From: Tridacna crocea
Taxonomy: Eukaryota; Mollusca; Bivalvia; Cardiida; Cardiidae
Direction: 5' to 3'
Assembly: GCA_943736015.1 (NCBI GenBank)
Contig: OX031063.1
Span: forward strand, 7,607,001 to 7,671,000
DNA length: 64,000 nt
The notes beneath the pieces were generated by a model. The model did not search any database. It was not told where the DNA came from and saw nothing but the letters and a program-made list of their open reading frames with translations. A program made the position numbers and the translations under genes. Position 1 is the first letter of the stretch, and each line of letters begins with the position of its first letter. Below, in pieces: positions 514 to 63,229 of this stretch.

Positions 514-743
514 TTAACCAATTACCACACAATCCCTTCTTTTGACGCCCCTGAGAAAGAAAGCCTTTTGAAAACACTGTGGGAAAAGGAGAAAATGCTG
601 GTAACCAGCATTTTCTCCTTTTCCCACAGTGTTTTCTACCCTTCCCAGAACAAATTTCAATTTTTCAGTCACCTTTATTTTGTCGTCTGCAAATGCTTTC
701 AATTTGGACCAGTCTGAAATTTTCTTGTCTGGTAAAGAGTTAA
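514..743 (+). mobile_element. Family A TTAA MITE, full length
   Basis: Complete copy with TTAA at 514 and 740. The hairpin at about 570-638 carries ACACTGTGG on the left arm and the matching CCACAGTGT on the right, a paired variant shared with a subset of copies. Right half contains the conserved TCGTCTGCAAATGC block. Confidence 0.92.
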
Positions 744-882
744 ACAACCCTTGAAGAAGCCTTTTACATGTATAAATATTGTGGGAAAAGGAGAAAATGA
801 TGGTAAACCACATTTTCTCCTTTCACCATAAATCAATGTTTTTTAACATTATCAAGGACAAATTCTACCATTGGAGACATCT
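740..882 (+). mobile_element. Family A remnant
   Basis: Decayed copy that abuts the preceding one at its right TTAA. Keeps AAGCCTTTTA, one good hairpin arm (GTGGGAAAAGGAGAAAATG) and a damaged second arm. The right third is unrecognisable. Confidence 0.6.
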
Positions 883-1112
883 TTAACCCTTTACTAAACG
901 ACAAAATTTTGGACTGGTTCATATTGAAAGCATTTTGCAGACGACAAAATAAACCTAACTCAATAATTGAGATTTGTTTCCAGCTGGGTAGAAAACAATG
1001 TGGGAAAAGGAGAAAATGCTGGTTACCAGCATTTTCTCCTTTTCCCACAATGTTTTCAAAAGCTTTCCTTCTCAGGGTCGTTAAAAGTTGGGATTGTGTG
1101 GTAAATAGTTAA
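883..1112 (-). mobile_element. Family A TTAA MITE, full length
   Basis: Complete reverse-oriented copy (GCAGACGACAAAATAAA block on the left, GGGATTGTGTGGTAA on the right). Its right TTAA (1109-1112) is also the left TTAA of the next copy. Confidence 0.92.
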
Positions 1113-1336
1113 CTCATTACCAAACAACAAAATTTTTGGTTTGTCCAAATCAAAAGCATTTGCAGACGACAAAAGAAAAGTGACTGAAAATTTGAAATTA
1201 ATTTGTGAAGGGTAGAAAAGATTGTGGAAAAAGGAGAAAATGCTGGTAACCAGCATTTTCTCCTTTTCCAACAATGTTTTCTAAAGGCTTCTTTCTCAGG
1301 GGCGTCAAAAGTAAGGATTGTGTGGTAATGGGTTAA
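1109..1336 (-). mobile_element. Family A TTAA MITE, full length
   Basis: Reverse copy sharing TTAA 1109-1112 with its left neighbour. The hairpin centre reads GGTAACC, the base normally seen in + copies, so the central base does not always follow the orientation of the flanks. Confidence 0.9.
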
Positions 1337-1466
1337 TTTGTTGTCTGCAAGTCCTTTCAATTTGAATCAGTCTAAAATTTTGTTGTTTATTATTGAACAG
1401 TATGTTTTTAAAAGACTTCTTTCCCAGGGTTGTTAAAAGTCAGTATTGTATGGTAAAGTGGTAAAG
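1333..1466. mobile_element. Fused family A end fragments
   Basis: The right end of a + copy (TTGTTGTCTGCAAGTCC onwards) runs straight into the right end of a - copy (AAGACTTCTTTCCCAGGG onwards). The hairpin between them is missing. Confidence 0.6.
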
Positions 1467-1580
1467 AATGAGGCAGTAATTATAAGCTGCACTGATACAT
1501 CATGTTAACATTTCAGGCCTGAGTCAATGTTTACATTTGAACATTTTCCATCTGACAGTGTGTCATGTATAAAATGTCAA

Positions 1581-2645
1581 CATACATATTCAGATTATTT
1601 ACTATTTACCTAACTTGTTTACCTCCTCTGTTCAACTGCTTTCAGCAGTAGACAACTTTAAAAACATTGCATCAAAGGAGATGTTCATGTTGAGTATTGA
1701 ACGATTTCTCCCTTTTGCCATTATCTTTTTGCGCATTAATGTATACATATTTAGATTATTTACTATTTACCTAAATTGTTTACCTCCTCTGTTCCACCGT
1801 GCTTTCAGCAGTATACAACTTTAAAAACATTGCAGCAAAGGAGATGTTCATGTTGAGTATTGAACGATTTCTCCCTTTTGCCATTATCTTTTTGCGTACT
1901 CATGTATACATAAACTTAAAAAAAAAATTCAGCAAAGGAGATGTTCATGTTGAGTATTGAACGATTTCTCCCTTTTGCCATTATCTTTCTGCGTATTCAT
2001 GTATACATATTCAGATTATTTCCTATTTACCCAACTTGTTTACCTCCTCTGTTCAACTGCTTTCAGCAGTAGACAACTTTAAAAACATTGCAGCAAAGGA
2101 GATGTTCATGTTGATTATTAAAAGATTTCTCCCTATTGCCATTATCTTTTTGCGCATTCATGTATACATATTTAGATTATTTACAATTTACCTAACTTGT
2201 TTACCTCCTCTGTTCAACTGCTTTCAGCGGTTACCGGTAGACAACTTTAAAAACATTGCAGCAAAGGAGATGTTCATGTTGAGTGTTGAACGATTTCTCC
2301 CTTTTGCCATTATGTTTTTGCGTATTCATGTATACATATTTAGATTATTTACTATTTACCTAACTTGTTTACCTCCTCTGTTCCACTGCTTTCAGCAGTA
2401 GACAACTTTAAAAACATTGCAGCAAAGGAGATGTTCATGTTGAGTGTTGAACGATTTCTCCCTTTTGCCATTATGTTTTTGCGTATTCATGTATACATAT
2501 TTAGATTATTTACTATTTACTTAACTTGTTTACCTCCTCTGTTCCACTGCTTTCAGCAGTAGACAACTTTAAAAACATTGCAGCAAAGGAGATGTTCATG
2601 TTGAGTGTTGAATGATTTCTCCCTTTTGCCATTATGTTTTTGGTA
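1581..2645. repeat. ~160-bp tandem repeat, about 6.5 copies
   Basis: Units begin near 1581, 1741, 1904 (truncated to about 97 bp), 2001, 2162, 2330 and 2491, each starting (G/C)ATACATATT-AGATTATTT. Every complete unit contains a polypyrimidine stretch, CTGCTTTCAGCAG and GCAAAGGAGATGTTCATGTTGAG. Period is 159-168 bp, not a multiple of three overall, yet open frames of 65-121 codons span units because stop codons are rare in one frame. I treat this as non-coding satellite-like DNA. Confidence 0.9.
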
Positions 2646-2650
2646 AGATG

Positions 2651-2890
2651 TCAACCCTTTATCAAACAATCCACGATTTTTATGGCCCAGAGTGAAGAAA
2701 CCTTCTGAAAACATTGTGGGTAAAGGAGAAAATGCTGGTAACCAGCATTTTCTCCTTTTCCCACAATGTTTTCTACTCTTCTAAAGTCAAGTTTCAATTT
2801 TTGAGTTACATTTATATTTTGTCTGCAAAATTAATGCTTTCAATTTGGACAAGCCTAAAATTTTGTCATAATTATGGTAAACAGTAAAGT
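2651..2890 (+). mobile_element. Family A TTAA MITE, diverged
   Basis: CAACCCTTTATCAAACAATCC start, good hairpin at about 2712-2774, decayed right end (GGTAAACAGTAAAG). Sits just after the 160-bp array and before the 3.4-kb element. Confidence 0.8.
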
Positions 2891-2941
2891 TTGAACAATT
2901 CCTCTGTTTAACCGTTATATTTTTGCTCTGTAACACTCATT

Positions 2942-2989
2942 CACAGTATATAAACGAACTGTACCCAAACCGGATCTTGCGAGTAAATT
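2942..2989 (+). repeat. Left 48-bp terminal inverted repeat
   Basis: Starts CACAGTATATAAACG and ends CTTGCGAGTAAATT; identical in reverse complement to 6301-6348. Confidence 0.93.
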
Positions 2990-3364
2990 TCAGTGATGTC
3001 CACTTTGCATTAGAGACAGCCGAGATAAAAATTGTTGCGTCTTTCATACTGCTGAATGTAAACTATGTGAATCTTTATTTATAGTTTATGCCAAACCTTT
3101 ATTGTTAATACATAAACTGCTATATAATCATTCTTAGCTTTAAAACATTGAAATTCTCAATACTCACCGCAGGCTACAGCGTCATTTGCAGTAGACCCAA
3201 TCTTAAATCAGCTTTTATCATGTTAAGGCTGGCTGAAACACGTTTTCTGAGTTTGAACCGGTGCAATTAATTAATTAAAAAAGACATTTGCGGCATTGGG
3301 CATTTTAAAGTTCGATTTTGAACATAAAAAATAAGAATTAATGACTCTATGTAAAGTAGGTCAA

Positions 3365-3469
3365 CTGTACGTTTCTTGCTGATGATTTGTACCCTTACTT
3401 GCGAGTTTACGAAATCTATCTGTACGATGTCTTGGGAGTTTTTTTCAAATATTCTGTACGGTTCTTGGG
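3365..3469 (+). repeat. Left subterminal repeat cluster
   Basis: Four degenerate copies of CTGTACN(3-4)T(T)CTTG(C/G)GAG at about 3365, 3387, 3420 and 3454, the same core as in the terminal repeat. Spaced 22-34 bp, as expected of transposase-binding subterminal repeats (inference). Confidence 0.7.
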
Positions 3470-4178
3470 ATAACAAATCTGATGCCTGATGGTATAAATC
3501 TGTATAAAATGGAGTAATTCAGATGCCTTTACAGCAAACTGTCAACCACAAGCTTTTGTGATATAAATAAATCATAATTTGGAAATCCATATAGGAAAAA
3601 CTTCAAGATCAAACTTTCAGAATTTGACTCACAAAGAAAAGAAACAATTTCGTATAAAAAAAAACTTCAAAAGTATTCCAAAAGATTTGAAGCTATGGAA
3701 CAGGCCTCTGCAACCTAATGGTGATACTAAGACAGTGAGTTTGAAGGCTTGTTTATGTGTCACCATTTAAAAAAAGCCCCATAAAGAAAGACACCAGTGA
3801 GGGACGTTCACAAGTTTCTTGAAGAATCTGAATGTTTTATGCGAAATACTGTTTAATAGTGGTTATTCCTATTCCTCATAGAAATGAGTCATCAGTCAAT
3901 GACTTAAGAAAATATTGTAAGAATTTGAGAAGAAATTACACTCAACGAACAATTTCTTCCTTTCTCGTTACATGTTCTATTCTTTTTCAAAATTATACTT
4001 TTATTAAGCAGATCTGTAAATTTTCCCGTTAATTCTCCCAAATTGGATGAGTCCAAGATGCCGTATCAGGAAATGGTAATTCCTCTTTTTATCTATTTAA
4101 GCAGATCAATCCCTCTTTTTATCTATCAGCGGATGAATACGAATTGTGAAATTTTATTGCATGAATTCGTTCTGTTCC

Positions 4179-6348: not shown

Positions 6349-6430
6349 TCATTGTATAATGCTGGTTAATTTCAAAAATAAGTACTTGACCAAGTTTGAA
6401 GAATTTGCAGATGCTAAACATAGCTTAAAG

Positions 6431-7352: not shown

Positions 7353-8118
7353 CATTTCCATGCTTTCTTGGAGTTCCTTTTATCAGTATTCTACACAATA
7401 TTTTTTCCAAATAAGCACATCAAATTTTGAACCTAAAGACTTTATTTGTCCTGCATGAGAAATCTTTGGAAAATAATGTGGCAAAAGAACAAAATGCTTA
7501 CAATGCAATGATAACGTAAAATTAAATACTACCACTCCTGTTATTAATAACTATCCACTTGAAACAAATTTAAACATTTAACTTGTTATCATACCAAAAA
7601 TCACAACTGTCCACTTCCTAAAGAAAAACACTGACCACAGTTGGTCTGTGATGTTATCATCAAATTATATCAGAAGCAAAAAATCCAAAATACCCGATAC
7701 AGGATGTACATCCCCTTCTATTAAGTGCATCAAGATAAAATATTTATGCCCAAAATCAAAAACTTTCACAATTTTCACCTGTAATTCTAGTTAACACCCC
7801 TCATCCACTGCAGGCCTGCCTTAAAACTGATAATTGACCCCTCACCAGGTGTAACACTGGTCACTTTTCCAATACTGACAGGTACATGGACAATAGCTGA
7901 CCAATCGTATTGCAGTATTGGACACAAGGTAAAGTGGGCATGTCGTGAGAACATTATGAGACAATGAAAATCAGTGATTTTTCATGTGCAGATAATAATT
8001 ATTTTGTGTAGGTAGTCAATCATGTATGCAAAGATAAACCTGTCCATTTAATGGCTGTAATCCCATTATGTTAGATCAACACACAGTCATCCTTGCTGAC
8101 TTTCTTTTACATTTATCA
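7353..8118. other. Spacer, nothing recognised
   Basis: Apart from a faint hairpin-arm trace near 7480 (GGAAAATAATGTGGCAAAAG), no gene or repeat is visible. Confidence 0.5.
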
Positions 8119-8350
8119 ACCTTTTACCACACTATCCCAAGTTAAGAACTTGAGAATGAAGGCTTATGAAAACATTGTGTGAAAAAGGAGAAAATGCTGG
8201 TAACCAGCATTTTCTCCGTTTTCACACAATGTTTTCTACCAGATTAAAGGCAACTTTCATCATTTAAGCTGCTCTTGATTTTTATTCTTCAAGTAATATT
8301 ATGCTTTGCATGTGGACAAAATGTACCATTTTTCTGTACAGTAAAAACTT
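8119..8350 (+). mobile_element. Family A, diverged
   Basis: Both hairpin arms carry the same G-to-T change (GTGTGAAAA left, TTTTCACAC right) while the flanks are heavily diverged. Confidence 0.78.
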
Positions 8351-20941: not shown

Positions 20942-21170
20942 TTAACCCATTACCACACAATCCCTACTTTTGATGCCCCTGAGAAAGAAGCCTTTTGAAA
21001 ACACTGTGGGAAAAGGAGAAAATACTGGTAACCAGCATTTTCTCCTTTTCCCACAGTGTTTTCTACCCTTTCCAGAACAAATTTCAATTTTTCAGTCACC
21101 TTTATTTTGTCGTCTGAAAATGCTTTCAATTTGGACCAGTCCAAAATTTTCTTGTGTGGTAATGAGTTAA
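20942..21170 (+). mobile_element. Family A TTAA MITE, full length
   Basis: ACACTGT/ACAGTGT paired-stem subfamily. First of two copies carried by the 492-bp tandem duplication. Confidence 0.92.
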
Positions 21171-21433
21171 GGAAAAATAGTATTTTCATTATTACTTATC
21201 TTCCAAACTGCCTTCAGTATAGATCAAGATCAAGTTGTTCGTTTGGCTTTCAACTGTTAAACAGTTACAGTAAGTTATTTTCATCAAAGCGATCAGTGCA
21301 CCTATCCACATATTTCTGGATAATTTCTTATTCAGGGTACTGTGTGTCACTCACAAATCCCCATGCAAGCCACTGACTGCATTCCATAAAAACAACAAAG
21401 AAACAGCTTTTTTGTTTTGGAGTATAATGCTGT

Positions 21434-21662
21434 TTAACCCATTACCACTCAATCCGTACTTTTGACACCCCTGAGAAAGAAGCCTTTTGAAAACACTGTG
21501 GGAAAAGGAGAAAATGCTGGTAACCAGCATTTTCTCCTTTTCCCACAGAATTTTCTACCCTTCCCAGAACAAATTTCTATTTTTGAGTCACCTTTATTTT
21601 GTCGTCTGCAAATACTTTCAATTTGGACCAGTCTAAAATTTTCTCATGTGGTAAAGTGTTAA
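21434..21662 (+). mobile_element. Family A TTAA MITE, full length
   Basis: Second duplicated copy. The right hairpin arm has CCCACAGAATTTTC where unit 1 has CCCACAGTGTTTTC, so it diverged after duplication. Confidence 0.92.
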
Positions 21663-21934
21663 GAAGAAAATTGTATTTTCATTATTACTTATCTTCCAAA
21701 CTGCCTTCAGTATAGATCAAGATCAAGTTGTTTGTTTGGCTTTCAACTGTTAAACAGTTACAGTAAGTTATTTTCATCAAAGCGATCAGTGCACCTATCC
21801 ACATATTTCTGGATAATTTCTTATTCAGGCTATCGTGTGTCACTCACAAATCCCCTTGCAAGCCACTGACTGCATTCCATAAAAACAACGAAGAAACAGC
21901 TTTTTTGTTTTGGAGTATAATGCTGTTTAAAAAT

Positions 21935-22262: not shown

Positions 22263-22759
22263 TCATTCACCTCTCACCACTAAGTATATATATATTTTTT
22301 TTGTTTGGATATGAGTTTACATAGGTTTATTGTATTTCAAACACAGGTTTTCAAAAATCTTCGATGAAATGGACAAGTATCTTCCCGGACAGAGAAGATT
22401 ATTTCGCTCACAGGACTTCAAAATTGGTCTTAAATTTAATGGACAAGTATCTTACTTAGTGTTTAAACAGTCCAATCCAATTAAATGGTCCCAGGTTTAG
22501 AGGAGATCAAACAGGCACTATCAGGGATCAATATCATCCTATCTTATCCCTTCCTTCACCAACTTTTAATCTGCAACGGAGAGTAACTGTTTCTGAAAAT
22601 ATTTTTATAAATGGAGACTTTGCTTATTTTTAACAGTTTATGGGTTTGTAAAAATGTTTTACTTTTATAGATCACAACTCGGCTCAAGTATTTATTTAAT
22701 GTTCAAACTTAAATTAGATCTAATAGGCATTTTAAAGCATATTACATGAACTTGTTGCT
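22263..22759. other. Spacer, nothing recognised
   Basis: A short direct repeat AATGGACAAGTATCTT (about 22367 and 22438) is the only structure. Confidence 0.45.
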
Positions 22760-22980
22760 TTCCAAGATGACAATATTAATAGACTTATCCAAACTGAAAG
22801 CATTTGCCAACGAAAAGTCAAGTGGCTAAAATCATCATTGAAAAATTGTATGCTTTTGAAAACAATGTGGGAAAAGGAGAAAATGCTGGTAACCAGCATT
22901 TTCTCCTTTTCCCACAATGTTTTCTGAAACCATCTCTCTTGGGAGTCATAAAAATGTTAGACATTTTGGCAAAGGATTAC
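22760..22980 (-). mobile_element. Family A, intact hairpin, decayed flanks
   Basis: Hairpin 22855-22925 perfect except one base, flanks recognisable (AAACTGAAAGCATTTGCC; GGCAAAGGATTA). Confidence 0.78.
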
Positions 22981-23460: not shown

Positions 23461-23686
23461 TTTCGGCTACAGTAGCTTGAATTTCAGTGAAAATTTTAAG
23501 TGGAGAAGAGCATAACTGTATCAAAAATATTTTGATGGTTATTTGCCCAATGTTGTATGGCTTTCCCTTTTAATACTTAACTATTAAATGCCTGAGTTAA
23601 AAGTAAAAATAATAAAAGAAATGTCATATGTCACATTTTTATAAATTTTCTATGTCAAAGAAGGGGGATAACCGTACAAAAAGAAA

Positions 23687-23977
23687 TTTGATGGTTGCAG
23701 GCCCATGTTGTATGGGCTCCCCTCTTGAAGGTTTGTTTGATGGTTGCAGGTCCATATTGTATGGGCTCCCCTCTTGAAGGTTTATTTGATGGTTGCAGGC
23801 CCATGTTGTATGGGCTCCCCTCTTGAAAGTTTATTTGATGGTTGCAGGCCCATGTTGTATGGGCTCCTCTCTTGAAAGTTTATTTGATGGTTGCAGGCCC
23901 ATATTGTATGGGCTCCCCTCTTGAAAGTTTATTTGATGGTTGCAGGCCCATGTTGTATGGGCTTCCCTCTTGAAACT
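23687..23977. repeat. 49-bp tandem repeat, 6 copies
   Basis: Units start at 23687, 23736, 23785, 23834, 23883 and 23932, each TTTGATGGTTGCAGG then the short palindrome GCCCATGTTGTATGGGC and TCCCCTCTTGAAAG. A diverged seventh copy may lie near 23533. Confidence 0.93.
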
Positions 23978-25492: not shown

Positions 25493-25548
25493 AAATGTCC
25501 CCAACTTTTTGTTTGGGACTTTCAAACTTGGACTGAAAGTGAACATTA

Positions 25549-25772
25549 TCTCTTTACCCGATGTCAAAATCCTAGACTTATCCAAATTGAAAGCATTTGC
25601 AGACGACAAATCAGTAGTGGTTTAGAATGCTGGAATTTGTCTTTAAATGGGTAGAAAACATTGTGGAAAAAGGAGAAAATGCTGGTTAACCAGCATTTTC
25701 TCCTTTTTCCACAATGTTTTCAATAGCCCTCTTTCCTAAAAGTCACTATGCCACAGGATTGCTGGGTGAAGA
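25549..25772 (-). mobile_element. Family A with perfect, variant hairpin
   Basis: Both arms carry GTGGAAAAAGG / CCTTTTTCCAC instead of GTGGGAAAAGG, and the centre is an even palindrome GGTTAACC. TTAA sites lost. Confidence 0.83.
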
Positions 25773-26146
25773 GTACAGAGCTGACCCCTGGACAATAGAC
25801 TGACCTACCCATTTTCAATGGTATACAGACCTCAAAATGACAGCGACAAGAAATATTACAAAATAATTTTTGCCCCATTTTTCAAGATGAGTTCCGATAC
25901 TGTCAACCAACCAGCCATAAATACTGATTAGGTTGTCTTGTTCGCCAAATACCCGGATTGGGCCAAAAGCCATTTAGGTACCAGATAATGGCCGGGCACC
26001 AGTCTGGCTTGAGTAATCAAAATACATAAACTTTTGACTTTTAACTAGTATTCAAAACCCTTTTAAATTTTTTGCACATCCCTACAATTATCTCAAGAGT
26101 GACACATTAAGAATAAGGAATGTATTTTGTTTGTTTGTGGTGGAGT
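25773..26146. other. Spacer, nothing recognised
   Basis: Somewhat more GC-rich than neighbours, no supported feature. Confidence 0.45.
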
Positions 26147-27625: not shown

Positions 27626-27992
27626 TCTCTTTACCACATAATCCTGACTTTTAATGACCCTAGAAAGAAGCCTTTTGAAAACATGTAATAATTATTTTCC
27701 ATAATGTCTTCTTCGGACGCTATGTTTGAAACTTTGTCTGTGTATTCCTGTATGTAAATGTGCGAATTGATCATCTAAAAATAGAACATGTTTTAATGAC
27801 CCTAGAAAGAAGCTTTTTGAAAACATTGTTGGAAAAGGAGAAAATGCTGGTAACCAGCATTTTCTCCTTTTCCAACAATGTTTTCTACCCCTTCTAAAAG
27901 GCATTTCAGTTTTTTAGTGATATTGCTTTTGTCATTTGTAAATGCATTCAGTTTGGACTAGTCTGTAAGTTTGTCATTTGGTAAAGAGCTCT
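27626..27992 (+). mobile_element. Family A split by a family C fragment
   Basis: The left flank passage TTTTAATGACCCTAGAAAGAAG through GAAAACAT occurs twice (about 27648-27684 and 27790-27826), separated by 105 bp of C sequence. The hairpin has a paired G-to-T change on both arms (GTTGG / CCAAC). Confidence 0.82.
27685..27789 (+). mobile_element. Internal fragment of family C
   Basis: Matches the middle of the C copies at 4179 and 32756 (TTTTCCATAATGTCTTCTTC, GAATTGATCATCTAAAAATAG) but has neither C terminus. Confidence 0.82.
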
Positions 27993-30339: not shown

Positions 30340-30548
30340 CCTTGAAACTGTCCACAATCCCAAGTTTTTGTTTCCTTGAAGAAGGAAGCTATTGGAAATA
30401 TGGTAGGAAGGTTGAAATATTGTTCACCAGCACTTTCTCCTTTTCTCACAATATTTTAAAAGCTCTGGAAAACAAACTTTCATCATTTGAGCTAATAACA
30501 GCATTTTATATCTGAAAAAGTTTGTACAAGTCTGAAGCTTTGTCATTC
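30340..30548 (+). mobile_element. Family A, strongly diverged
   Basis: CACAATCCCAAGTTTTTG, CACCAGCACTTTCTCCTTTTC and ACAAGTCTGAAGCTTTGTC keep the family order. Confidence 0.55.
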
Positions 30549-30775
30549 ACTCTTTACCACACAATCCCGACTTTTAACGACACGGAATAAGAAGCCTTTG
30601 AAAACATTGTAGGAAAAGGAGAAAATGCTGGTAACCAGCATTTTCTACTTTTTCTACAATGTTTTCTACCCTTCCCAAAACAAGTTTTAATCTTTCAGCT
30701 TTTTTTATTTTGTTGTCTGCAAATACTTTCAATTTGGACCAGTCCAAAATTTTGTTGTTTGGTGTAAAGAGTTAA
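30547..30775 (+). mobile_element. Family A MITE
   Basis: The hairpin carries a paired G-to-A change (GTAGGAAAA / TTTTTCTAC). Right TTAA intact. Confidence 0.87.
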
Positions 30776-33733: not shown

Positions 33734-34139
33734 TGTTTGGGGCCTAGCTAGTAACATATGAGTGTTTGGGGCCTAGCTAGTAAAATATGAGTGTTTGGGG
33801 CCTAGCTAGTAAAATATTAGTGTTTGGGGCCTAGCTAGTAAAATATTAGTGTTTGGGGCCTAGCTAGTAAAATATGAGTGTTTGGGGCCTAGCTAGTGAA
33901 ATATGAGCGTTTGGGGCCTAGCTAGTAAAATATGAGTGTTTGGGGCCTAGCTAGTAAAATATGAGCGTTTGGGGCCTAGCTAATAAAATATGAGTGTTTG
34001 TGGCCTAGCTAGTAAAATACGAGTGTTTGGGGCCTAGCTAGTAAAATATGCATGTTTGTGGCCTAGCTAGTAAAATATGAGTGTTTGGGGCCTAGCTAGT
34101 AAAATATGAGTGTTTGTGGCCTAGCTAGTAAAATAGCAA
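33734..34139. repeat. 29-bp minisatellite, 14 copies
   Basis: TGTTTGGGGCCTAGCTAG then TAAAATATGAG, repeated with a strict 29-bp period from 33734 to 34111 with few substitutions. The low divergence suggests recent expansion, and length may vary between individuals. Confidence 0.96.
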
Positions 34140-35297: not shown

Positions 35298-35528
35298 TTA
35301 ACCCTCTACCCCATAAGGCATTTCTATGGTATCTTGAATTGACCCTAAATAACAGCAAGGAGGAAGCTTGTTTCTTATGTGTATTATGACACATTTTGAT
35401 AGCATAGAGAACATTGTGGCAAAAGGTGAAATTGCTCATCACGAGCAATTTCACCTTTTGCCACAATGTTTTCCAAAGACCCCTACAAGCAATGCGTAGA
35501 AATGAGTATCTATGGAGTAAAGGGTTAA
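35298..35528 (+). mobile_element. Family B TTAA MITE, full length
   Basis: TTAA at both ends, hairpin about 35405-35472 with apex GCTCATCACGAGC. Confidence 0.92.
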
Positions 35529-35795: not shown

Positions 35796-36001
35796 AAAAA
35801 TCGGTAACAAGTGGAAAAAAACGAAAACGAGGCTACCAATATGGACGTACTTTTTACGTGCTCTAGGAAAATAGTAATCATTCAGCAATTTTCTTAATTG
35901 ATATATTGTGATTTTATTCGGGAATAAATATAAAAATAGGATTAAGTCATTGGCACATTTAAAACCGCTCCTGTAAGTGAAAAAAACAGTGAAAAGGTGA
36001 A

Positions 36002-37543
36002 ATGACCGGCAAAAAACACAACAAAGGAGCAGACAAAGGAACAAATATGGCGGGAAAAAATACTACAAAGCCTCCGGGATTTGCTGAAGAGGGATCAAAT
36101 CGAAATAGACTGTTAACAAACATTATTCAGGAGAACTCAAAGGGACAGATTAATACAGAATCTAACATGCAAGTAAGCCAAAACCCTAAAAATCTGACCG
36201 CAAATATTCCATCTGTATCCTCAGCACCATCCCCACCCACAGTTGATAGTACAGGAAAATGTATTCATCAATCATACCCCGTGACCAATCCGTTATACAC
36301 AGGAGCCATGAACAATACAAACATAATGTCCCACTCCGATATGCAAAATAGCGGGATATATGGAGTTCTACAACAAATTCAGCAAGAGCTTAGACAAACA
36401 CAAATAACTAATACAAATGTACTCACAAGGCTCACAGAAATAGAAAACAACGTATCAAAATTGTCAAAAATTGAAAATATTATGGAAAAAGTACAAACTG
36501 ACGTAAACAAACTGAAAAAAGAAAATGAGAGAATTTCATCCCAAGTGACAGAATTTGAAACATCATGTCAAGCTATGAGCTCCATGTTCGACGCATATAT
36601 AGACTCAAGGGAGCGAACTGAGAAGGAGATTACTGAGCTGAAATTAATAAACCAAAACTTAGATCAAAACGTGAAAACTATGAACCAAAATTACGAAAAA
36701 ATGCAAAATGAAATACTTGAATTGAAAACTCGTTCAATGCAAGAAAACTTATTGTTCTTTGGGATAGAAGAGAAACCAGGTGAAAATACAGAAACAGAAC
36801 TGAGAAACTTTTTGAAAAACCAAGTTCTGCCAAACTCACCAGAATCAGTAGATCAAATAGTCTTTGATAGAGTTCATAGGCTAGGCGCGAGAAGAGGAAG
36901 CAGGGATAAACCGAATGCTAGGCCAATAGTCGCAAAATTTGAAAGATATACCGACAGAGAATATGTGAGAAAGGAATCATTCAATCTAAATAGAGAAAAA
37001 AACGGATATACAGTGCGGGAACAATTCCCTTACGAAATCGAACAAAAACGGAAAACCCTCTACCCAGTTATGAGAAAATTCAAAGCAAATAAAGAAAATA
37101 AAGTAGTGCTTATCCGTGACAAGTTATTTATTAACGGTACACAGTATATACCAGAGGAAAAAACCGACAACCCCGGTATACCTATGAGTGAATATCACTC
37201 TCGTGACCCTCGACCTCAATCGAATACTCAGCGCAGAAGCCGGGAATTTGATCCACCAGTACCATTGTCAAACCGTTTCCAGAGTCTTGCAGAACATGAT
37301 GTCATTAGGAAAACACCGCAAAAATCATCGCAAGGCCATAAGAATAAGGCCAGATCGCCTCTGGAAGAAGAAAATTCAAAAAAGTACAAAACTTCCGAAT
37401 CATCGAACATGTTTGATGAGCAAAGTGTAATCGTCTCGAATGTACTAGGGCAAGCGCACTCAGTATTGAACCCGATAGGAGAAAACCCTATTGTTTTGGA
37501 TGGCACGTGCTCAAACGTTGCGGGAGGTCCGGTCTATGACTAG
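36002..37543 (+). CDS. LINE ORF1 protein, L1-like (coiled coil + RRM + C-terminal domain)
   Basis: 513 residues, basic and polar. Residues about 1-115 are low-complexity and rich in S, N, T and P. About 120-245 are a heptad-rich coiled coil (for example EIENNVSKLSKIENIMEKVQ), expected to trimerise. About 246-330 resemble the RRM of L1 ORF1p, opening at ENLLFFGIEE and including FDRVHRLG and RPIVAKFERYTDRE. About 331-385 match the C-terminal domain (YTVREQFPYEIEQKRKTLYP). The last ~125 residues are a disordered tail with no zinc knuckles. In this family the protein coats LINE RNA and acts as a nucleic-acid chaperone. ATG at 36002 is the first in frame and leaves about 200 bp of leader. The stop lies 72 bp before ORF2, so ORF2 probably needs reinitiation or internal initiation. 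Confidence 0.9.
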   Translation: MTGKKHNKGADKGTNMAGKNTTKPPGFAEEGSNRNRLLTNIIQENSKGQINTESNMQVSQNPKNLTANIPSVSSAPSPPTVDSTGKCIHQSYPVTNPLYTGAMNNTNIMSHSDMQNSGIYGVLQQIQQELRQTQITNTNVLTRLTEIENNVSKLSKIENIMEKVQTDVNKLKKENERISSQVTEFETSCQAMSSMFDAYIDSRERTEKEITELKLINQNLDQNVKTMNQNYEKMQNEILELKTRSMQENLLFFGIEEKPGENTETELRNFLKNQVLPNSPESVDQIVFDRVHRLGARRGSRDKPNARPIVAKFERYTDREYVRKESFNLNREKNGYTVREQFPYEIEQKRKTLYPVMRKFKANKENKVVLIRDKLFINGTQYIPEEKTDNPGIPMSEYHSRDPRPQSNTQRRSREFDPPVPLSNRFQSLAEHDVIRKTPQKSSQGHKNKARSPLEEENSKKYKTSESSNMFDEQSVIVSNVLGQAHSVLNPIGENPIVLDGTCSNVAGGPVYD

Positions 37544-37615
37544 GAATGTGCGGGAAGGTCAAATAAAGCATGGGAAACACGTGACAGTTCGAAATCTGAA
37601 GCTAACGGTACTTTA

Positions 37616-40600
37616 ATGAATCAGTCTGATCCCTTAGATCGCAATAGCTCACGTGATAAAGGCAGTAACGGTACGTCATCTGCAAGTGTTTCCCAAATGG
37701 ACGGCTCGAAATGCTTGACGTTTTTAACTTTAAATGTCTGTGGCTTATTAAGCAAACAAAACACCCCCGAGTTTTTAGAAATAATTAAGAACTATGACAT
37801 TATCGGACTGCAAGAAATAAAAATGGACGACACCGATTATTTTTGCATTAAAGATTATACTTTCTACAGTAATAATAGACGTGCTCTTACAAACAGGAAA
37901 TCAGGTGGCATAGGGTTATTGGTTAAAAATAGTATTGCTTCACATGTTAGTATACTGAACATTAAAAGTAAACATGCACTCTGGTTTACATTATCTAATA
38001 AATTGACGGAGATAGGTGATGTTCTCTGTGGTGTACTATATGTACCTCCGGAGAACTCAGCATACTCTGTCAATGATCCTTACTCTGAAATCAAGGAAGA
38101 AATTGATTCGCTCAATGATATATATTCACATTATTTACTGTTTGGTGACTTTAACTCACGTACAAAGGAAAAGGCTGATTTTATCGCCGTAAATGAATGT
38201 ATTCTCCAATCATTGAATTCGGAAGAATTAATTGAGGAATATAATCAAGAAATTTTATCATTTGAAAACACAAATGTGAACGTAAATAGGAAAAATTGTG
38301 ATCAATCAATGAATAACCTCGGTTATAAATTGATTGACTTTGCTCAGGAACAAAATTTATTCATTTTGAATGGTAGAACTAGAGGTGACCTAGACGGTAA
38401 AGTAACATCAAGAAACGTCAGTACTATCGATTATTTTTTATGTAGTTCTGGTCTCTTTCGTTTTATTGATTGTCTTTCTGTGAGGGATTTTTGTCCTCTT
38501 TTATCTGATGTTCACTGTCCTGTATCATTATGTACTTCTTTCCGCACGAAAGCGACATGCACTTGCGCACAAACAGAGAATACTGACATAAAAACATGGA
38601 ATCATTTTAAAAAAGACGAATTCGATAAAAATATAAAAAATGACCATATAAACAAAATTCTAGATGAGATTTCTAGAATAACACATGAGAGTACAGATTA
38701 TCAAAAAGACATAGATTCTATCGTTGAAAGTATTGGTAGTTTATTCATGGAAACTGCAGAAAAAAGCTTTGGCACAACAACATTTAAATCTCCTAATCAT
38801 TATTGCACATTACATAAACACAATTTAACTATTAATCCATTACCTAATTGGTTTAAAGGCGATTGTAAAAGAGCAAGGAAAAAATTTCACAGAGCGAAAT
38901 TGAATTATAAATTACGCAAAAGTGAAATAAATAAGTCAAATCTTAAAAAATGCAGTAAAAATTATAAATATACATTGTCAAAATACTCTAGAATTGACAG
39001 GGAAAAAATAGCTAATGAAATTAAAAACACAAAACATTCTAACCCCCGAAAATTTTGGAAAATACTGAATTCCGAAAGCCCTCAAAGCGATATAAAGTGT
39101 AGTATTACAGATTTACACGATTATTTCAAAGATATAAATTCATCTTCACAAATTGGAGATAATATGCCATATTTAAACATCAATGATGAGAATTCTGAAA
39201 ATGAATTAAATTGTGAAATAACATACGATGAAATTGAAAAAGCTTTGAAAAATCTGAAAAATAATAAAGCGTGCGGTATTGATAAAATACTTAACGAACA
39301 TATCAAGTACAGTTACATGTCTCTTAAACATGTCTACTTCAAATTATTCAATTTAATTTTAGACAAAGGTATTTTCCCAAAATCGTGGTCCTCTGGTATT
39401 ATACACCCAGTTTATAAAAACAAAGGCGATCCCACAATCCCTTCAAATTATAGACCGATCACTCTTTTAAGCTGTCTTGGAAAATTATTTACCAGTATTC
39501 TTAACACACGCCTGCATAAATATGTCGAATCCAATAAAATTATACATGATTACCAATCAGGATTTAGGAAAGGTTTCTCAACTACAGACAATATGTTCCT
39601 ACTACATTCTTTAATTCAGTTAGCGTTTAAGTCCAAACAAAAACTTTTTTGTGCGTTTATCGATTTAAAGCAGGCGTTCGACACAGTTTGGAGAGATGGT
39701 CTATGGCACAAACTAATATCAGTAAATATTAACGGTAAATGCTTGCGTCTTATCAAAAATATGTACAATGACATAAAATCATGCGTTCGAGTAGGCAAAA
39801 CGTGCTCAAATCTCTTCCCATGTTTAAATGGCTTAAGGCAAGGCGAAAATTTATCCCCAATTTTATTTTCGATCTATTTAAATGATCTCCATGACTTTTT
39901 TAATAACTCAGGAGTATGTAACGGTTTTAGCATACCGAATGAATTAAATGAGGATTACAACTTATTCTTAAAAATGTTTGTACTATTATATGCCGATGAC
40001 ACAGTGCTACTCGGAAGTACGGCAGACGACTTACAAAACGCATTAGACTTATATGAAAATTATTGTAACACATGGAAACTCACAGTCAATACAATGAAAT
40101 CAAAAGTAGTCGTTTTTTCAAAAGGAAGACAAGGGACCTACAACTTTACATATAATCAGGCGCCAATAGAAACTTTAAACGAATACAAATATCTCGGAAT
40201 TATTTTTAGTCGCTCTGGGTCTTTCTATAAAACAAAAACAGAAATTGCAAATCAAGCTACTCGAGCGATGTACAGTTTACTTCGGAAAATTAAAAGACTT
40301 GCTCTACCAATCGATACTCAAATTGATTTATTCGAAAAAACCGTTAAACCAATCTTGCTATACGGGTGCGAACTTTGGTCTTTCGAAAATAACCAAATTC
40401 TAGAAAAAGTCCAACTTAAGTTTTTAAAATACATACTACATATAAAAAAGTCAACTTCATCCCATATCATCTACGGAGAAACTGGGGTTTATCCTTTATC
40501 TATTGATATAGAAACAAGATTCATCTCGTTTTGGTCAAAAATTATTTTACGTAAACATAATTATCTAGTAACAAATGTATACAGACATATTTATAACATT

Positions 40601-41173
40601 TATTGTAACTCTGAAAACGTGTCAAATATAACCCTTTTCCATTGGATAAAACATGTCAAAAATATCCTTGTCAAATGCGGCTTGATAAATATTTGGGATA
40701 GTCAAAGTTTTCCAAATGATAAATGGTTAAAATTAACAATAAAACAAAAGTTAAAAGATCTTTTTATTAATTCCTGGTTTAGTAAAATCGAAAATAATGA
40801 TAGTTGTCATACTTACAGATTGATAAAAAAGAAATTCGGATTGGAAAAATATTTAATTCAGACTCCTCCTGCACTTTTGAAATACATGATAAAATTCAGA
40901 ACAAATAATCATAGATTACCTATTGAAGTAGGAAGATGGTCAAATCTTGAAACCAGAGAACGAATCTGCAACCTCTGTAATAGCTCCATTGGTGATGAGT
41001 ATCACTATATTTTTGAGTGTAACTCATTCAGTGATCAAAGAAAAAAATTAATTTCTAAAAAATTTTCAAAGCGACATAATGTCGTTAAATTTGAACGTCT
41101 AGTAAATTCTACAGACCGTTCTGAAATTGTAAATTTGTGTAAATTTATCAAAATCATCATAAACTCCTTTTAA
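37616..41173 (+). CDS. LINE ORF2 protein: APE endonuclease and reverse transcriptase
   Basis: 1185 residues, uninterrupted. Residues about 33-310 form an apurinic-like endonuclease: N40 (LTLNVCG), E67 (GLQEIK), GDFN at 177-180, TIDYFLC at 270-276 and SDVH at 297-300 are the expected catalytic positions. The reverse transcriptase spans about 540-830: YRPITLLSCLGKLF (612-625), QSGFRKGFSTTDN, FIDLKQAFD (681-689, first catalytic Asp), GLRQGENLSPILFSIYLNDL and LLYADDTVLL with the YADD box at 792-795. A C-terminal CCHC (C1118, C1121, H1130, C1135; ERICNLC...YIFEC) matches the zinc-binding domain often found after reverse transcriptases of this type. No RNase H domain is seen. The protein nicks target DNA and primes reverse transcription from it. 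All catalytic residues I can check are present, so it may be active. Confidence 0.95.
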   Translation: MNQSDPLDRNSSRDKGSNGTSSASVSQMDGSKCLTFLTLNVCGLLSKQNTPEFLEIIKNYDIIGLQEIKMDDTDYFCIKDYTFYSNNRRALTNRKSGGIGLLVKNSIASHVSILNIKSKHALWFTLSNKLTEIGDVLCGVLYVPPENSAYSVNDPYSEIKEEIDSLNDIYSHYLLFGDFNSRTKEKADFIAVNECILQSLNSEELIEEYNQEILSFENTNVNVNRKNCDQSMNNLGYKLIDFAQEQNLFILNGRTRGDLDGKVTSRNVSTIDYFLCSSGLFRFIDCLSVRDFCPLLSDVHCPVSLCTSFRTKATCTCAQTENTDIKTWNHFKKDEFDKNIKNDHINKILDEISRITHESTDYQKDIDSIVESIGSLFMETAEKSFGTTTFKSPNHYCTLHKHNLTINPLPNWFKGDCKRARKKFHRAKLNYKLRKSEINKSNLKKCSKNYKYTLSKYSRIDREKIANEIKNTKHSNPRKFWKILNSESPQSDIKCSITDLHDYFKDINSSSQIGDNMPYLNINDENSENELNCEITYDEIEKALKNLKNNKACGIDKILNEHIKYSYMSLKHVYFKLFNLILDKGIFPKSWSSGIIHPVYKNKGDPTIPSNYRPITLLSCLGKLFTSILNTRLHKYVESNKIIHDYQSGFRKGFSTTDNMFLLHSLIQLAFKSKQKLFCAFIDLKQAFDTVWRDGLWHKLISVNINGKCLRLIKNMYNDIKSCVRVGKTCSNLFPCLNGLRQGENLSPILFSIYLNDLHDFFNNSGVCNGFSIPNELNEDYNLFLKMFVLLYADDTVLLGSTADDLQNALDLYENYCNTWKLTVNTMKSKVVVFSKGRQGTYNFTYNQAPIETLNEYKYLGIIFSRSGSFYKTKTEIANQATRAMYSLLRKIKRLALPIDTQIDLFEKTVKPILLYGCELWSFENNQILEKVQLKFLKYILHIKKSTSSHIIYGETGVYPLSIDIETRFISFWSKIILRKHNYLVTNVYRHIYNIYCNSENVSNITLFHWIKHVKNILVKCGLINIWDSQSFPNDKWLKLTIKQKLKDLFINSWFSKIENNDSCHTYRLIKKKFGLEKYLIQTPPALLKYMIKFRTNNHRLPIEVGRWSNLETRERICNLCNSSIGDEYHYIFECNSFSDQRKKLISKKFSKRHNVVKFERLVNSTDRSEIVNLCKFIKIIINSF

Positions 41174-45867: not shown

Positions 45868-45944
45868 TGGTTTTGTTCCTTAGAATCTCATTTTCACTGA
45901 CCATACCCCCAATCTCATTTTCATTTTCTTCATTTTCTTTATTT

Positions 45945-46152
45945 CTATCTTATTTTTGCTGACCTTATCCCTATCTCATTTTCGTTACCATTATTTCTAT
46001 CTCATTTTCGTTACCATTATTTCTATCTCATTTTCATTACCATTATTTCTATCTCATTTTCGTTACCATTATTTCTATCTCATTTTCGTTACCATTATTT
46101 CTATCTCATTTTCGTTACCATTATTTCTATCTCATTTTCACTAATCTTAATA
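45945..46152. repeat. 26-bp tandem repeat, 8 copies
   Basis: CTATCTCATTTTCGTTACC then ATTATTT, exact 26-bp period from 45971, one degenerate unit before it. It is read open as a repeating hydrophobic peptide, which I consider meaningless. Confidence 0.95.
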
Positions 46153-58500: not shown

Positions 58501-58566
58501 GGTGGCATACTGCATTATAATTTATGTGGCTAAAATAGCTTGATTTTGGTTTTGGAACTTCTGATA

Positions 58567-59606: not shown

Positions 59607-59714
59607 GGTGTTTTTTTTTTTAATTCTTTGGAACTTTGAACCCTTTGGGGCAAAGTAAATGAAACAGGCATTTTCATTTGGGCAATTTGAAAGAGACATA
59701 ATAAATTGTAGCGA

Positions 59715-59967: not shown

Positions 59968-60389
59968 ACAAGGCCTCTGGTTGGAGATTCTTCTGTAATA
60001 CTGGACAGTCCATTTCCCACTGACGCTGATTACTTTCCATTGCAGGGGCTAATCTCACTCTATATCGTCTTCCGACTCATGCACTAAAGTACATACATAT
60101 TGTGGCTAGCAGACTGAAGTGTTAGTGACTCATCTTCCACCTTTCACCAAAATAAATGCAAAGAATCAAATATGGAAATCAATGTGACAATGTTTTGTCA
60201 ATGACATTATGCTGCCAATGCTGATATCTTATAGACTAGAGACTTTGACAAAACGAAATATACAATTCCCATTGTAAAATCATTGTTTTTCAAACAAATT
60301 CCTATGCTGTTGGCGTCATTAGAATTTGCCTTGATTATTCCGGCAACAATAAGGTTAATATAATGTATTACAGCAATAAATTCTCAATC
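59968..60389. other. Spacer, nothing recognised
   Basis: No supported feature. Confidence 0.45.
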
Positions 60390-60619
60390 ACACAGTACAA
60401 AGTTTTAGCTACCCTGATTCAGAAAGCTCTAGAAAACATTGTGGGATTTTGAAAGAAGAAAATGCTGGTAACCAGCATTTTCTCCTTTTCCCCTAATGTT
60501 TCTCACTAAGCTAAAGGCGTCAGTTTTATCATTTGAATAATCTCTGATTTGTTGTCTCAAAATGCTATGACTGTTTGACTTTGGACAGTGCTATTATTTT
60601 ATAATGTGATTATAAGTTA
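60390..60619 (+). mobile_element. Family A, diverged
   Basis: AAAACATTGTGGGATTTTGAAAGAAG shows an 8-bp insertion in the left arm; ends TTATAAGTTAA. Confidence 0.72.
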
Positions 60620-60691
60620 AACCAATTAATTTTTACTTTACAAGACACTCACTCACTGTTCTATAAATAACTGAGTACCCACAACATGGGT

Positions 60692-60920
60692 TTAACCCAT
60701 TACCAAACGACAATATTTTAGACTGGTCCAAATTGAAAGTGTTTGCAGATGACAAAATAAAAGTGACTGAAAATTTGAAATTTGTTTTGTGAAGGGTAGA
60801 AAACATGGTGGGAAAAGGAGAAAATGCTGGTTACCAGCATTTTCTCCTTTTCCCACAATGTTTTCTAAAGGCTTCTTTCTCAGGGGCGTCAAAAGTAGGC
60901 ATTGTATGGTAATGGGTTAA
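60692..60920 (-). mobile_element. Family A TTAA MITE, full length
   Basis: Near-consensus copy with 20+ bp terminal match. Confidence 0.93.
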
Positions 60921-61354
60921 ATAATAGAACTTAAAACTGTTTCCCCCCATTGAACCAGCAAAGCTCCCTCAGAAATATTCAACGTCTGATGAAAGGGTAA
61001 AATATATTAGCGGCCACTTGATTATAGTAAAAAAAGTGACGACAATGACAGAGTGTTAGTTATCTGGTGGTCGAACAATCATAAAGGAACAAGAAGGTCG
61101 CGACAAAACCGATGATTACAATTCTTTACACTAAAGATAACGGGCTGCACACTTTCAACACGATAAGACAATTACGCGACTTTTTTGTTTAACCGAGTAG
61201 ATCAGAATATGCAGACTGATTTTAGGTCGACCCTTTTTGCGTGACAATTCTAGGAATTGCTTGATTATAGAGTATCCCACAATGCTTTCTTTAGTCTTTA
61301 CTAGAAGACAGAATTTAGACTTGGGCAAATCCAAGCATTCACAGACAAGACTAA
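60921..61354. other. Spacer, nothing recognised
   Basis: No supported feature. Confidence 0.45.
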
Positions 61355-61780
61355 TTAACTTTTTACCAAATGACAAAACTGTAGACCTGTTCAAATTGAA
61401 GCCCTTTGCCACCAACATTTCAAAATTTAACCCATTACCACACAATCCCTACTTTTAACGACCCTGAGAAAGAAGTCTTTTGAAAACACTGTGGGAAAAG
61501 GAGAAAATGCTGGTGACCAGCATTTTCTCCTTTTCCCACAGTGTATTCTACCCTTTCCAGAACAAATTTCAATTTTTCAGTCACATTTATTTTGTCGTCT
61601 GTAAATGCTTTCAATTTGGACGAGTCTAAAATTTTCTTGAGTGGTAAAGAGTTAATGTGACTTTGAAAATGAAATTTCTATTTAGAATTGTAGAAAACAT
61701 TGTGGGAAAAGGAGAAAATGCTTGTTACCACAATTTTTCAAAAGGCTTCTCTCTCAGATTCAGATTTTTCGTTTGTTTCT
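61355..61780 (-). mobile_element. Family A interrupted by another family A
   Basis: TTAACTTTTTACCAAATGAC...CATTTCAAAA, then the inner copy, then TGTGACTTTGAAAATGAAA and the hairpin resume at the internal TTAA. The right end is decayed. Confidence 0.82.
61427..61655 (+). mobile_element. Family A TTAA MITE, inside family A
   Basis: Complete, ACACTGT/ACAGTGT subfamily; centre GGTGACC. Confidence 0.93.
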
Positions 61781-61938
61781 TTGTTACGGACTATGTTCGT
61801 AAGACTATTCCTTAATGACACTATAAAGAATTAATGATTTATGCAGGACTGAACTTGTAGATAAACAGAATTACAATTATATTTTTTCAACAGGTAATAT
61901 TACCAAACTTGGTACATAGTTTATGTAACAAGTTTATC

Positions 61939-62167
61939 TTAACCCATTACCACACAATCCCTACTTTTGACGCCCCTGAGAAAGAAGCCTTTAGAAAACA
62001 TTGTGGGAAAAGGAGAAAATGCTGGTAACCAGCATTTTCTCCTTTTCCCACAATGTTTTCAACCCTTTGCAAAACAAATTTCAAATTTTCAGTCACTTCT
62101 CTTTGGTCGTCTGCAAATGCTTTCAATTTGGACCAGTCTAAAATATTGTTGTGTGGTAATGGGTTAA
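61939..62167 (+). mobile_element. Family A TTAA MITE, full length
   Basis: TTAACCCATTACCACAC / GTGTGGTAATGGGTTAA: a 17-bp perfect terminal inverted repeat. Confidence 0.94.
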
Positions 62168-62398
62168 CTTATCCATTTTTGTATTCAGATCATGTAACAT
62201 TAGGGTAGTGAAAGGATTATCTAAATTAATCTTGTTTACAATCTGCAAATTGTCCTTAGATATTTTACTCTGGGGGCTGACCTTCTGAACTGAGATGACA
62301 CAATGGGAAGGGATAAGAAGTCTTGAAAAATGATTTAAGAGTTAAGAAAAAAGCTTATAGCTTCTTTTCTCACAAAGTTACAAAGTCATTCATGGCCG

Positions 62399-62459
62399 CC
62401 TACCAAACAATCTCAACTTGTCTGAAATTTTGTCCATAATATTATATTGTTAAGTAACC
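62399..62459 (+). mobile_element. Family A solo ends
   Basis: CTACCAAACAATCTCAACTT joined directly to GTCTGAAATTTTGTCC; about 170 bp including the hairpin deleted. Confidence 0.55.
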
Positions 62460-62691
62460 CTAACCCTTTACCAGATGACAAAATTTCAGCCTTATCTGAA
62501 ATAAAAGCATTTGCAGACCACAATTTCAGTGTGGCTTAAAAGGTGCAACTTTTCTTTCATTGGGTAAAAAAAAACATTGTGGGGAAAGGAGAAAATGCTG
62601 GTTACCAGCATTTTCTCCTTTTCTCACAATGTTTTCAGAAGGCTTCATTTTTAGGGGCATTAAAAATTGTCACTGTCTGGTAAAGGGTTAA
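62460..62691 (-). mobile_element. Family A MITE
   Basis: CTAA left, TTAA right; extended perfect hairpin except GTGGGGAAAGG / CCTTTTCTCAC. Confidence 0.88.
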
Positions 62692-63006
62692 TCAAGGAAA
62701 CCAACCACAGGACAGCTTTGTAAAACAGTAGTTGTTGGAAAAACTAAACTGATCAAAAGTATAAACAAATTCATGCCAGAATTATTCTACACAAAACAAG
62801 AGCTTCTGTCACATTACAATTAGTGCACTTCTAACTGAAAAGGCTTCTTGCAATACTAATTGAACCTTTTAAGGTAGATTCTGTCATGATGACTCCTTCG
62901 AGTGCAATATTATGTGACATAAGTCACCTATAACTTTCATACCATAAGTACTACTTTTTCTGAGCTCTTAGTCAAATACATATAGTAGGGTACCTATTTT
63001 AATTGT
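62692..63006. other. Spacer, nothing recognised
   Basis: No supported feature. Confidence 0.45.
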
Positions 63007-63229
63007 TTAACCCCTTACCAAACAATCCCTGGTTTTTGCGACCCAGAGGAAGAAGCCTTCTGAAAATATTGTGAGAAAAGGAGAAAATGCTGGTAACCAG
63101 CATTTTCTCCTTTTCTCACAATGTTTTCTATGCTTTTGAAGTCAAGTTTCAAGTCACCTATTTTCTCATTAGCATTATGCTTTTCAATAACTGACAAGTC
63201 AAAAATTTTGTTGTTCGGCAAAGAGTTAA
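63007..63229 (+). mobile_element. Family A TTAA MITE
   Basis: Paired G-to-A change in both arms (GTGAGAAAA / TTTTCTCAC). Right TTAA shared with the next copy. Confidence 0.9.

What the first reader, a model, noticed from the sequence alone, without database searches (positions are those of the whole stretch)
544..63125. Hairpin arms change together within single copies
Many copies carry a substitution on the left arm matched by its complement on the right: ACACTGT/ACAGTGT (near 573, 1000s of bp apart also 20999, 61482), GTGTGAAAA/TTTTCACAC (8175), GTGGAAAAAGG/CCTTTTTCCAC (25660), GTTGG/CCAAC (27826), GTAGG.../...CTAC (30606), GTGAG/CTCAC (63070). Some mark subfamilies, but several are seen once. 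Independent mutation should usually break pairing, so arms seem to be corrected against each other, or pairing is selected (structured RNA).
Basis: partly seen in the sequence, partly recalled or inferred. Interest (0 to 1): 0.78.

Follow-up and report, generated by a model that had tools for sequence, protein, structure and literature searches.

The report
Paired changes in a million-copy hairpin transposon
A short mobile DNA, estimated at about a million copies in one genome, carries a near-perfect 67-base hairpin whose two arms change together more often than chance, probably because parent copies kept the hairpin matched and passed it on, while copies at rest mostly lose the match and sometimes flip the hairpin's tip.

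Summary
The repeat is a ~228-bp non-coding TTAA element with a central 67-bp palindrome, 17% of 250 kb sampled, extrapolating to ~1 million copies. Paired arm changes exceed chance: 164 cells against 48 expected in 258 copies; 109 against 68 (sd 7.6) without the main inherited variants; genome-wide 401 and 192 mirror doubles against 64 and 72 non-mirror doubles. Yet one-arm changes dominate (1230 to 164; 3097 to 401 at one site). The five commonest paired types are inherited with their flanks. Four subfamilies whose flank consensuses differ by 11-25% share one perfect hairpin; between all six consensuses arm differences are five paired types and one single, within them singles dominate. So matching seems kept in source lineages and decays in resident copies; general arm correction is not supported, though minor paired types remain unexplained. 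Separately, the centre base reads T about six times more than arm bases do, more so in copies with diverged flanks, T 1551 to G 552 genome-wide: a spacer-inversion signature, not linked to arm matching here.

The parts
514..742 (+). Full element of the CACTG subfamily: TTAA end, central palindrome, inverted right end
   Evidence: nhmmer hit end to end; one other place 100% and others 96-99% identical over 161 bp
570..636 (+). Its 67-bp palindrome, centre base A at 603, no unpaired arm position, pair 26 C-G
   Evidence: read directly; window 544-665 folds at -58.3 kcal/mol, shuffles mean -22.2
8118..8342 (+). Copy cited at 8175: extra base in each arm and G-C to T-A at pair 21, one unpaired position
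   Evidence: left-arm variant in 15 places genome-wide; right arm fully matched in none of the 7 others read
20942..21169 (+). CACTG/CAGTG copy, first unit of a 493-bp tandem duplication
21434..21661 (+). CACTG copy, second unit of the duplication; the visible hairpin differences between the two units are on one arm only
   Evidence: sequences, coordinates
25548..25774 (-). Copy cited at 25660, paired change at pair 20, no unpaired position, nearest sampled flank 71% identical
27787..27988 (+). Copy cited at 27826, GTTGG/CCAAC (pair 22), no unpaired position; best other right flank found in the genome 84% identical
30547..30774 (+). Copy cited at 30606, pair 22 G-C to A-T, two unpaired positions
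   Evidence: same pair state in 401 otherwise perfect 55-mers
61427..61654 (+). CACTG/CAGTG copy cited at 61482, one unpaired position, centre G
63007..63228 (+). Copy cited at 63070, GTGAG/CTCAC (pair 21), one unpaired position
   Evidence: same pair state in 192 otherwise perfect 55-mers
1110..1336 (-). Copy whose centre base reads T in element orientation (flipped tip)
35299..35528 (-). Copy of the second subfamily (GTGGCAAAAGGTGAAATTGCTC arms), four paired flips from the main hairpin
   Evidence: sequence; cluster 126

Best explanation
It is a piggyBac-like (TTAA) miniature element whose central 67-bp palindrome is needed, or at least favoured, for being copied. Source elements with a matched hairpin leave progeny, so the changes that survive in source lineages are those that keep both arms matched; each new copy then decays freely, mostly on one arm at a time. 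The paired variants are therefore mainly inherited from source lineages: two clear large ones (the CACTG and the GTGGCAAAAGG subfamilies) and, by inference, many small ones. SHOWN: excess of mirror doubles, inheritance of the five main types, stronger conservation of the arms with distance, dominance of one-arm changes, over-abundance of the flipped centre base. INFERRED: that the minor types are inherited too; that selection acts through transposition, for example through a dimeric transposase reading a symmetric site; and that hairpin template switching sometimes supplies the paired change in one step.
For: Between six flank-defined cluster consensuses: 5 distinct paired types and 1 single (7 and 1 counted by cluster), mean arm difference 6.8% against 30.8% in flanks; the four largest-group hairpins are identical while flank consensuses differ by 10.6-25.0%. 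Within the clusters: one-arm 289, paired 37, double-unpaired 7; 27 of the 32 paired in the largest cluster match its 27 pair-26 carriers. Arms 91-92% conserved, ends 84-88%, rest 78%, in 275 copies. Arm/flank divergence ratio between relatives falls from 0.82 for the closest to 0.52-0.55 for distant ones. Second subfamily and pair 26 set aside: among 65 copies with 0-1 unpaired positions, 9 paired carriers have median nearest-flank identity 0.82, the 56 others 0.93, p=0.0002; same direction at 2-4 and 5-9 unpaired, none at 10 or more. Paired number rises more with flank divergence than with mismatches (coefficients only). piggyBac transposase domain PF13843 in the genome: 118 matches, 26 of them, by eye, spanning at least positions 4-348 of 349 without a stop.
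Against: 17 of 22 paired types with at least two carriers show no shared flanks, so for them inheritance is not shown; with 261 copies out of about a million, small source lineages would be missed, but so would recurrent events. The 27826 copy has a perfect hairpin yet no flank relative above 84% among the 40 scored of 1737 candidates, not what a recent copy of a fertile source predicts. Copies with at most 4 arm changes already hold 14 paired to 3 unpaired doubles. Tree counts put 37-42 paired changes on terminal branches against 10-11 simulated. The distinct paired differences between consensuses are few (5), and the second subfamily's flanks differ by 47-52% from the others, so their homology is doubtful. 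No transposition was tested.
Confidence: 0.6

Rival explanations
1. Arm correction in resident copies: the hairpin forms during replication or as a cruciform, the polymerase or mismatch repair copies one arm onto the other, and mutations become paired in one step.
For: Mirror doubles 401 and 192 against 72 and 64, cross ratio 16.7; centre base T in 30 of 232 against 2.0% at arm A-T sites, 3, 9 and 18 T of 79 per flank-divergence tertile, 3 of 82, 9 of 86 and 13 of 83 in a second grouping; T to G genome-wide 1551 to 552 against 192 to 290 in arms; arm homogenisation and spacer inversion by template switching are described in yeast (PMC8604942, passages) and for RNA genes (PMC8794818, abstract and one section).
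Against: One-arm changes dominate in all classes; the 42 centre-T of 262 copies have neither fewer mismatches nor more paired changes at matched flank divergence (effect -0.18, sd 0.6); two perfect consensus hairpins lie in flanks only 63-65% like any other (22758-22979; L040/340-540), whereas in my simulation of unbiased correction only one of 4000 copies combined flank divergence above 25% with at most one mismatch, and it held ten paired changes (rates chosen by me); at pair 14 the 100 listed rows give 8 paired to 5 unpaired doubles by eye.
Confidence: 0.2
2. Ectopic gene conversion among the copies: breaks at the hairpin tip are repaired from another copy, in either orientation because the arms are symmetric, which spreads paired variants, flips the centre and keeps hairpins near the consensus.
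For: Would explain unclustered flanks of minor paired types, consensus hairpins in diverged flanks and centre flips without change in mismatch number.
Against: The main paired types follow their flanks: pair 26, 27 of 37 carriers in one cluster and 4 in another; pair 20, 7 of 9 in one. Homology in inverted alignment is only about 67 bp.
Confidence: 0.15
3. Independent mutation plus subfamily structure only; no real excess.
For: A large part of the paired cells comes from five inherited types; at pair 14 no clear excess.
Against: Excess remains after their removal, 109 against 67.9 (sd 7.6, highest of 500 shuffles 94), and at two sites genome-wide (z 14.6 on the log cross ratio; copies are related, so z is too large).
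Confidence: 0.04

Closest known systems
CMITE, coral piggyBac-like MITEs (PMC2872659; abstract, passages and one section seen)
   Same: TTAA target duplication, CCCTTT-type end, short, head-to-tail or abutting copies, internal ~75-bp region more conserved than the terminal repeats, suspected role of that region in transposition
   Different: About 100 bp, and 108 to 737 expected copies in the family rows I saw; here ~228 bp, about a million estimated, and the conserved interior is a palindrome (the words palindrom- and hairpin do not occur in that main text)
piggyBac and piggyBat transposon ends (PMC11707139, passages)
   Same: TTAA; transposase C-terminal domains bind as a dimer to palindromic sites in the ends, which would favour symmetric changes
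   Different: Those sites are 14-19 bp and near the ends; here one central 67-bp palindrome; binding not tested
Template switching between inverted-repeat arms (PMC8604942 passages; PMC8794818 abstract and one section; PMC6649704 passages)
   Same: Spacer inversion; paired arm changes in excess
   Different: Here arm homogenisation is not shown to go with spacer inversion; the substrate is a transposon family

Membership tests
piggyBac/TTAA MITE | TTAA at both ends | tested here: met
   183 end-to-end copies: TTAA in the first 14 nt in 159, in the last 14 nt in 147, both 131; chance 9% per 14 nt; the profile itself ends in TTAA, which favours such copies
piggyBac/TTAA MITE | CC[C/T]T terminal motif at both ends (motif as given in PMC2872659) | tested here: inconclusive
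   Left model consensus CCCTTT, but CCCATT in several seed copies; right end CTCTTT in the model, CTCATT or CCCATT in seed copies
piggyBac/TTAA MITE | Non-coding and short | tested here: met
   Model length 228; the two longest open frames of the window belong to a LINE
piggyBac/TTAA MITE | Autonomous partner with the same ends | not tested
   Transposase domain PF13843 present, 118 matches; the ends of those elements were not read
CMITE-like | Internal region more conserved than terminal repeats | tested here: met
   Arms 0.911 and 0.917, ends 0.876 and 0.842, 275 copies; copies were found with a profile of the whole element
CMITE-like | Internal sequence homologous to coral CMITE | not tested
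   Coral sequences were not compared
Template-switch target | Recurrent spacer inversion | tested here: met
   a one-base spacer, so inversion is inferred from A to T; genome-wide count for centre A not obtained
Template-switch target | Arm homogenisation accompanying inversion | tested here: inconclusive
   No effect seen; limited power with 42 centre-T copies
Structured RNA gene | Match to a known RNA family | tested here: not met
   No match at gathering score in the window
Structured RNA gene | Wobble-tolerant arm changes | tested here: inconclusive
   G-T 340 against A-C 422 one-arm mismatches; made on decaying copies
Structured RNA gene | Expressed hairpin or small RNAs | not testable with these tools
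   No RNA data held

The most novel reading that the evidence does not exclude
The resident hairpins are physically active DNA: across about a million copies the tip inverts recurrently, at a rate above that of point mutation at an arm site, and the same process now and then copies one arm onto the other, so the family is a genome-wide record, graded by flank divergence, of hairpin template switching or cruciform flipping in a germ line.
Probability: 0.4. Interest if true: 0.7.

Novelty: new variant of a known kind. Interest (0 to 1): 0.5.

Why it matters
How long stems keep their pairing while changing sequence is an old question; template switching has been proposed as an answer but selection on RNA can hide it. 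A non-coding element with an estimated million copies, a one-base spacer and resident copies that decay freely gives a place where paired change, one-arm change and spacer inversion can be counted in hundreds to thousands and set against flank divergence. It also adds a case, beside coral CMITEs, of a TTAA miniature element whose interior is more conserved than its ends, here with an obvious structure.

Tried and rejected
Chance pairing: rejected by slid columns, swap shuffles and exact genome counts at two sites. Tree simulation: rough only; it overstates changes in already broken pairs on internal (34 and 49 against 1 and 0) and on terminal branches (166 and 214 against 38 and 23), so I do not use it as evidence of constraint. 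Association of centre T with arm matching: no effect. Indels in both arms: 20 of 293 copies, 6 with a mirrored deleted position; no statistic made. Extension of the palindrome beyond the arms: T to A at model column 54 (0-based) makes a pair in 41 of the 251 copies examined, whose flanks cluster like those of the unchanged state, so inherited; the reverse change (12 copies) does not cluster. Wobble signature: none seen. Simulations of inheritance and correction use rates of my choice and only illustrate. Literature: the papers listed by searches (lists capped at 10-20; one search found none) include none whose title or abstract start concerns arm homogenisation or spacer inversion within a MITE family; nothing wider is claimed. 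The host was not identified; a mollusc was guessed from recall and is not used.

An early note gives 88 copies and 75 single; recounted by eye the 100 listed rows are 87 copies, 74 one-arm, 8 paired, 5 unpaired doubles. Two earlier statements of mine were mended after a check: flank distances of the four hairpin-sharing clusters are 11-25%, not 31%, which is the mean over all six. One search was a script that failed and was rerun. Copies dropped before counts: L002 and L041 (inside the window); hits with fewer than 28 of 33 sites in either arm; for reduced counts, 27 second-subfamily copies and pair 26. The 327 usable copies are 169 from spaced stretches, 87 from the window and 71 from loci fetched because of a match, so they are not a random sample.
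Full report
WHAT IS THERE. The window lies in an unnamed 1.05-Gb assembly of 31 contigs; with a LINE of two open frames in the window I take the host to be an animal, but it was not identified. The repeat has a 228-column model: TTAACCCTTTACCACACAATC..., a 67-bp palindrome with 33-bp arms and one centre base (model columns 56-122 counted from 1), about 106 further columns, and an inverted end ...GGTAAAGAGTTA. The window holds 111 hits covering 32% of it. In 25 regularly spaced 10-kb stretches, 242 hits cover 43,350 of 250,000 bases, which extrapolates to 1.0 million hits, bootstrap 0.76-1.28 million; stretches differ from 0 to 22 hits, and hits include fragments. Of 458 copies, 83 neighbouring pairs lie within 6 bp of each other, most often overlapping by 4, as a shared TTAA would give. 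The hairpin strand folds at -58.3 kcal/mol against -22.2 for shuffles.

GENOME-WIDE COUNTS. Exact 55-base patterns, both strands: 66A/110T 401, 67A/109T 192, non-mirror 67A/110T 64 and 66A/109T 72; cross ratio 16.7, about fourfold per site, z 14.6. One-arm 66A with normal partner: 3097. Of 66A copies with either the normal or the complementary partner, 11.5% are paired; the same ratio for the neighbouring non-mirror change is 2.3%. At pair 14, a 35-base pattern gave 20,901 matches; the 100 listed rows are 87 copies with 74 one-arm, 8 paired and 5 unpaired doubles by eye, no clear excess, so the effect may be uneven among sites. Copies are related, so z overstates the evidence.

SOURCE LINEAGES AGAINST RESIDENT COPIES. 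Clustering 261 copies on flanks alone at 20% gives six clusters of at least four (78, 19, 11, 9, 8, 4). Those of 78, 19, 11 and 8 have identical, perfectly paired hairpin consensuses, 0 of 66 arm positions different, while their flank consensuses differ by 10.6-25.0%. Differences from the largest: 7 paired and 1 single by cluster, 5 and 1 distinct; they come from the cluster of 4 (flank consensus 29% away) and the cluster of 9 (49% away, homology of flanks doubtful). Within clusters of 78, 19, 11, 8, 4, 9 copies: one-arm 159, 65, 31, 15, 2, 17; paired 32, 2, 1, 0, 0, 2; double-unpaired 3, 2, 1, 0, 0, 1; 27 of the 32 fit the pair-26 carriers. Relatives chosen on one half of the flank and measured on the other: arm/flank divergence 0.82 for the closest, falling to 0.52-0.55; one-arm to paired 44:3, 241:14, 265:21, 424:17, 727:36, 1289:92 with rising distance, pairs not independent. 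The arms are the best conserved part of the element. This is the pattern expected of a part constrained while a lineage is a source and free afterwards; it is not proof of selection.

WHERE THE MINOR PAIRED VARIANTS COME FROM. Among copies with 0-1 unpaired positions, paired carriers have more diverged flanks (nearest identity 0.82 against 0.93, 9 and 56 copies, p=0.0002); the same at 2-4 and 5-9 unpaired, not at 10 or more. Without the second subfamily, 5 of 60 copies with flank divergence above 25% have at most one unpaired position, with 0.6 paired changes each; in illustrative simulations unbiased correction gave one such copy of 4000, with ten paired changes, and inheritance 208, with 0.57 each. 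Against this, the 27826 copy has no flank relative above 84% among those scored, and of 8 copies with the 8175 left arm one has a nearly matched right arm (window), one a partly matched one (L039) and six neither, so correction or conversion in single copies is not excluded. In the four-copy cluster, the left-arm G to A at pair 2 stands on one arm in L031/8503-8728 and on both in L030/1878-2096, flanks 85% identical: a one-arm and a paired state of the same change among relatives.

THE TIP FLIPS. In 239 copies whose two flanks each fix the orientation, the centre base is A 193, T 30, G 7, C 2, gap 7; arm A-T sites in the same copies change to T at 2.0% and to G at 3.1%. T is thus about sixfold over expectation, G near normal. 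T rises with flank divergence, 3, 9, 18 of 79 per tertile or 3 of 82, 9 of 86, 13 of 83; flank divergence mixes copy age with source lineage. Carriers do not share flanks (25 carriers). Genome-wide 47-base oriented patterns: T 1551, G 552, odds ratio 4.2 against arms. Inversion of a spacer between inverted repeats is a known product of template switching (PMC8604942, passages); cruciform flipping and exchange with an inverted copy would look the same. Copies with a flipped centre are not better matched than others at the same flank divergence, so flipping and arm matching are not shown to be one process.

MECHANISM. Most likely: paired variants arise rarely in source elements, by two steps or one template switch, and are kept because a symmetric hairpin helps the element to be propagated; resident copies decay. 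A concrete reason for symmetry is offered by piggyBac transposases, whose C-terminal domains bind palindromes as dimers (PMC11707139, passages); this genome has many PF13843 frames. That step is inference.

NOVELTY. The closest precedent found is CMITE of corals, TTAA elements with an interior more conserved than the ends (PMC2872659). The palindromic interior, the copy number and the flipping centre are additions, so I call it a new variant of a known kind.

Noticed in passing
window 35993-41173, +: Two long adjacent open frames (516 and 1209 aa) of a LINE; the second has endonuclease and reverse transcriptase domains.
   Followed up: partly
window 1582-2642: Tandem arrays with periods of about 97, 161 and 260 bp in overlapping rows.
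   Followed up: no
window 33734-34135: About fourteen copies of a 29-bp unit shortly after two neighbouring elements.
   Followed up: no
window 23686-23975 and 45939-46139: Minisatellites of 49 bp and 26 bp, 95% and 93% matching.
   Followed up: no
window 20942-21930: Tandem duplication of about 493 bp, 94% matching, each unit holding one element; the hairpin differences seen between the units are on one arm.
   Followed up: partly
window 683-706 (model columns 168-191, 0-based): A second box, TCGTCTGCAAATGCTTTCAATTTG, is 84-86% conserved, above most of its surroundings.
   Followed up: no
G000:C8:56710862-56757774 and C13:4481437-4612957: Clusters of piggyBac transposase domain matches, many with stops.
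   Followed up: no
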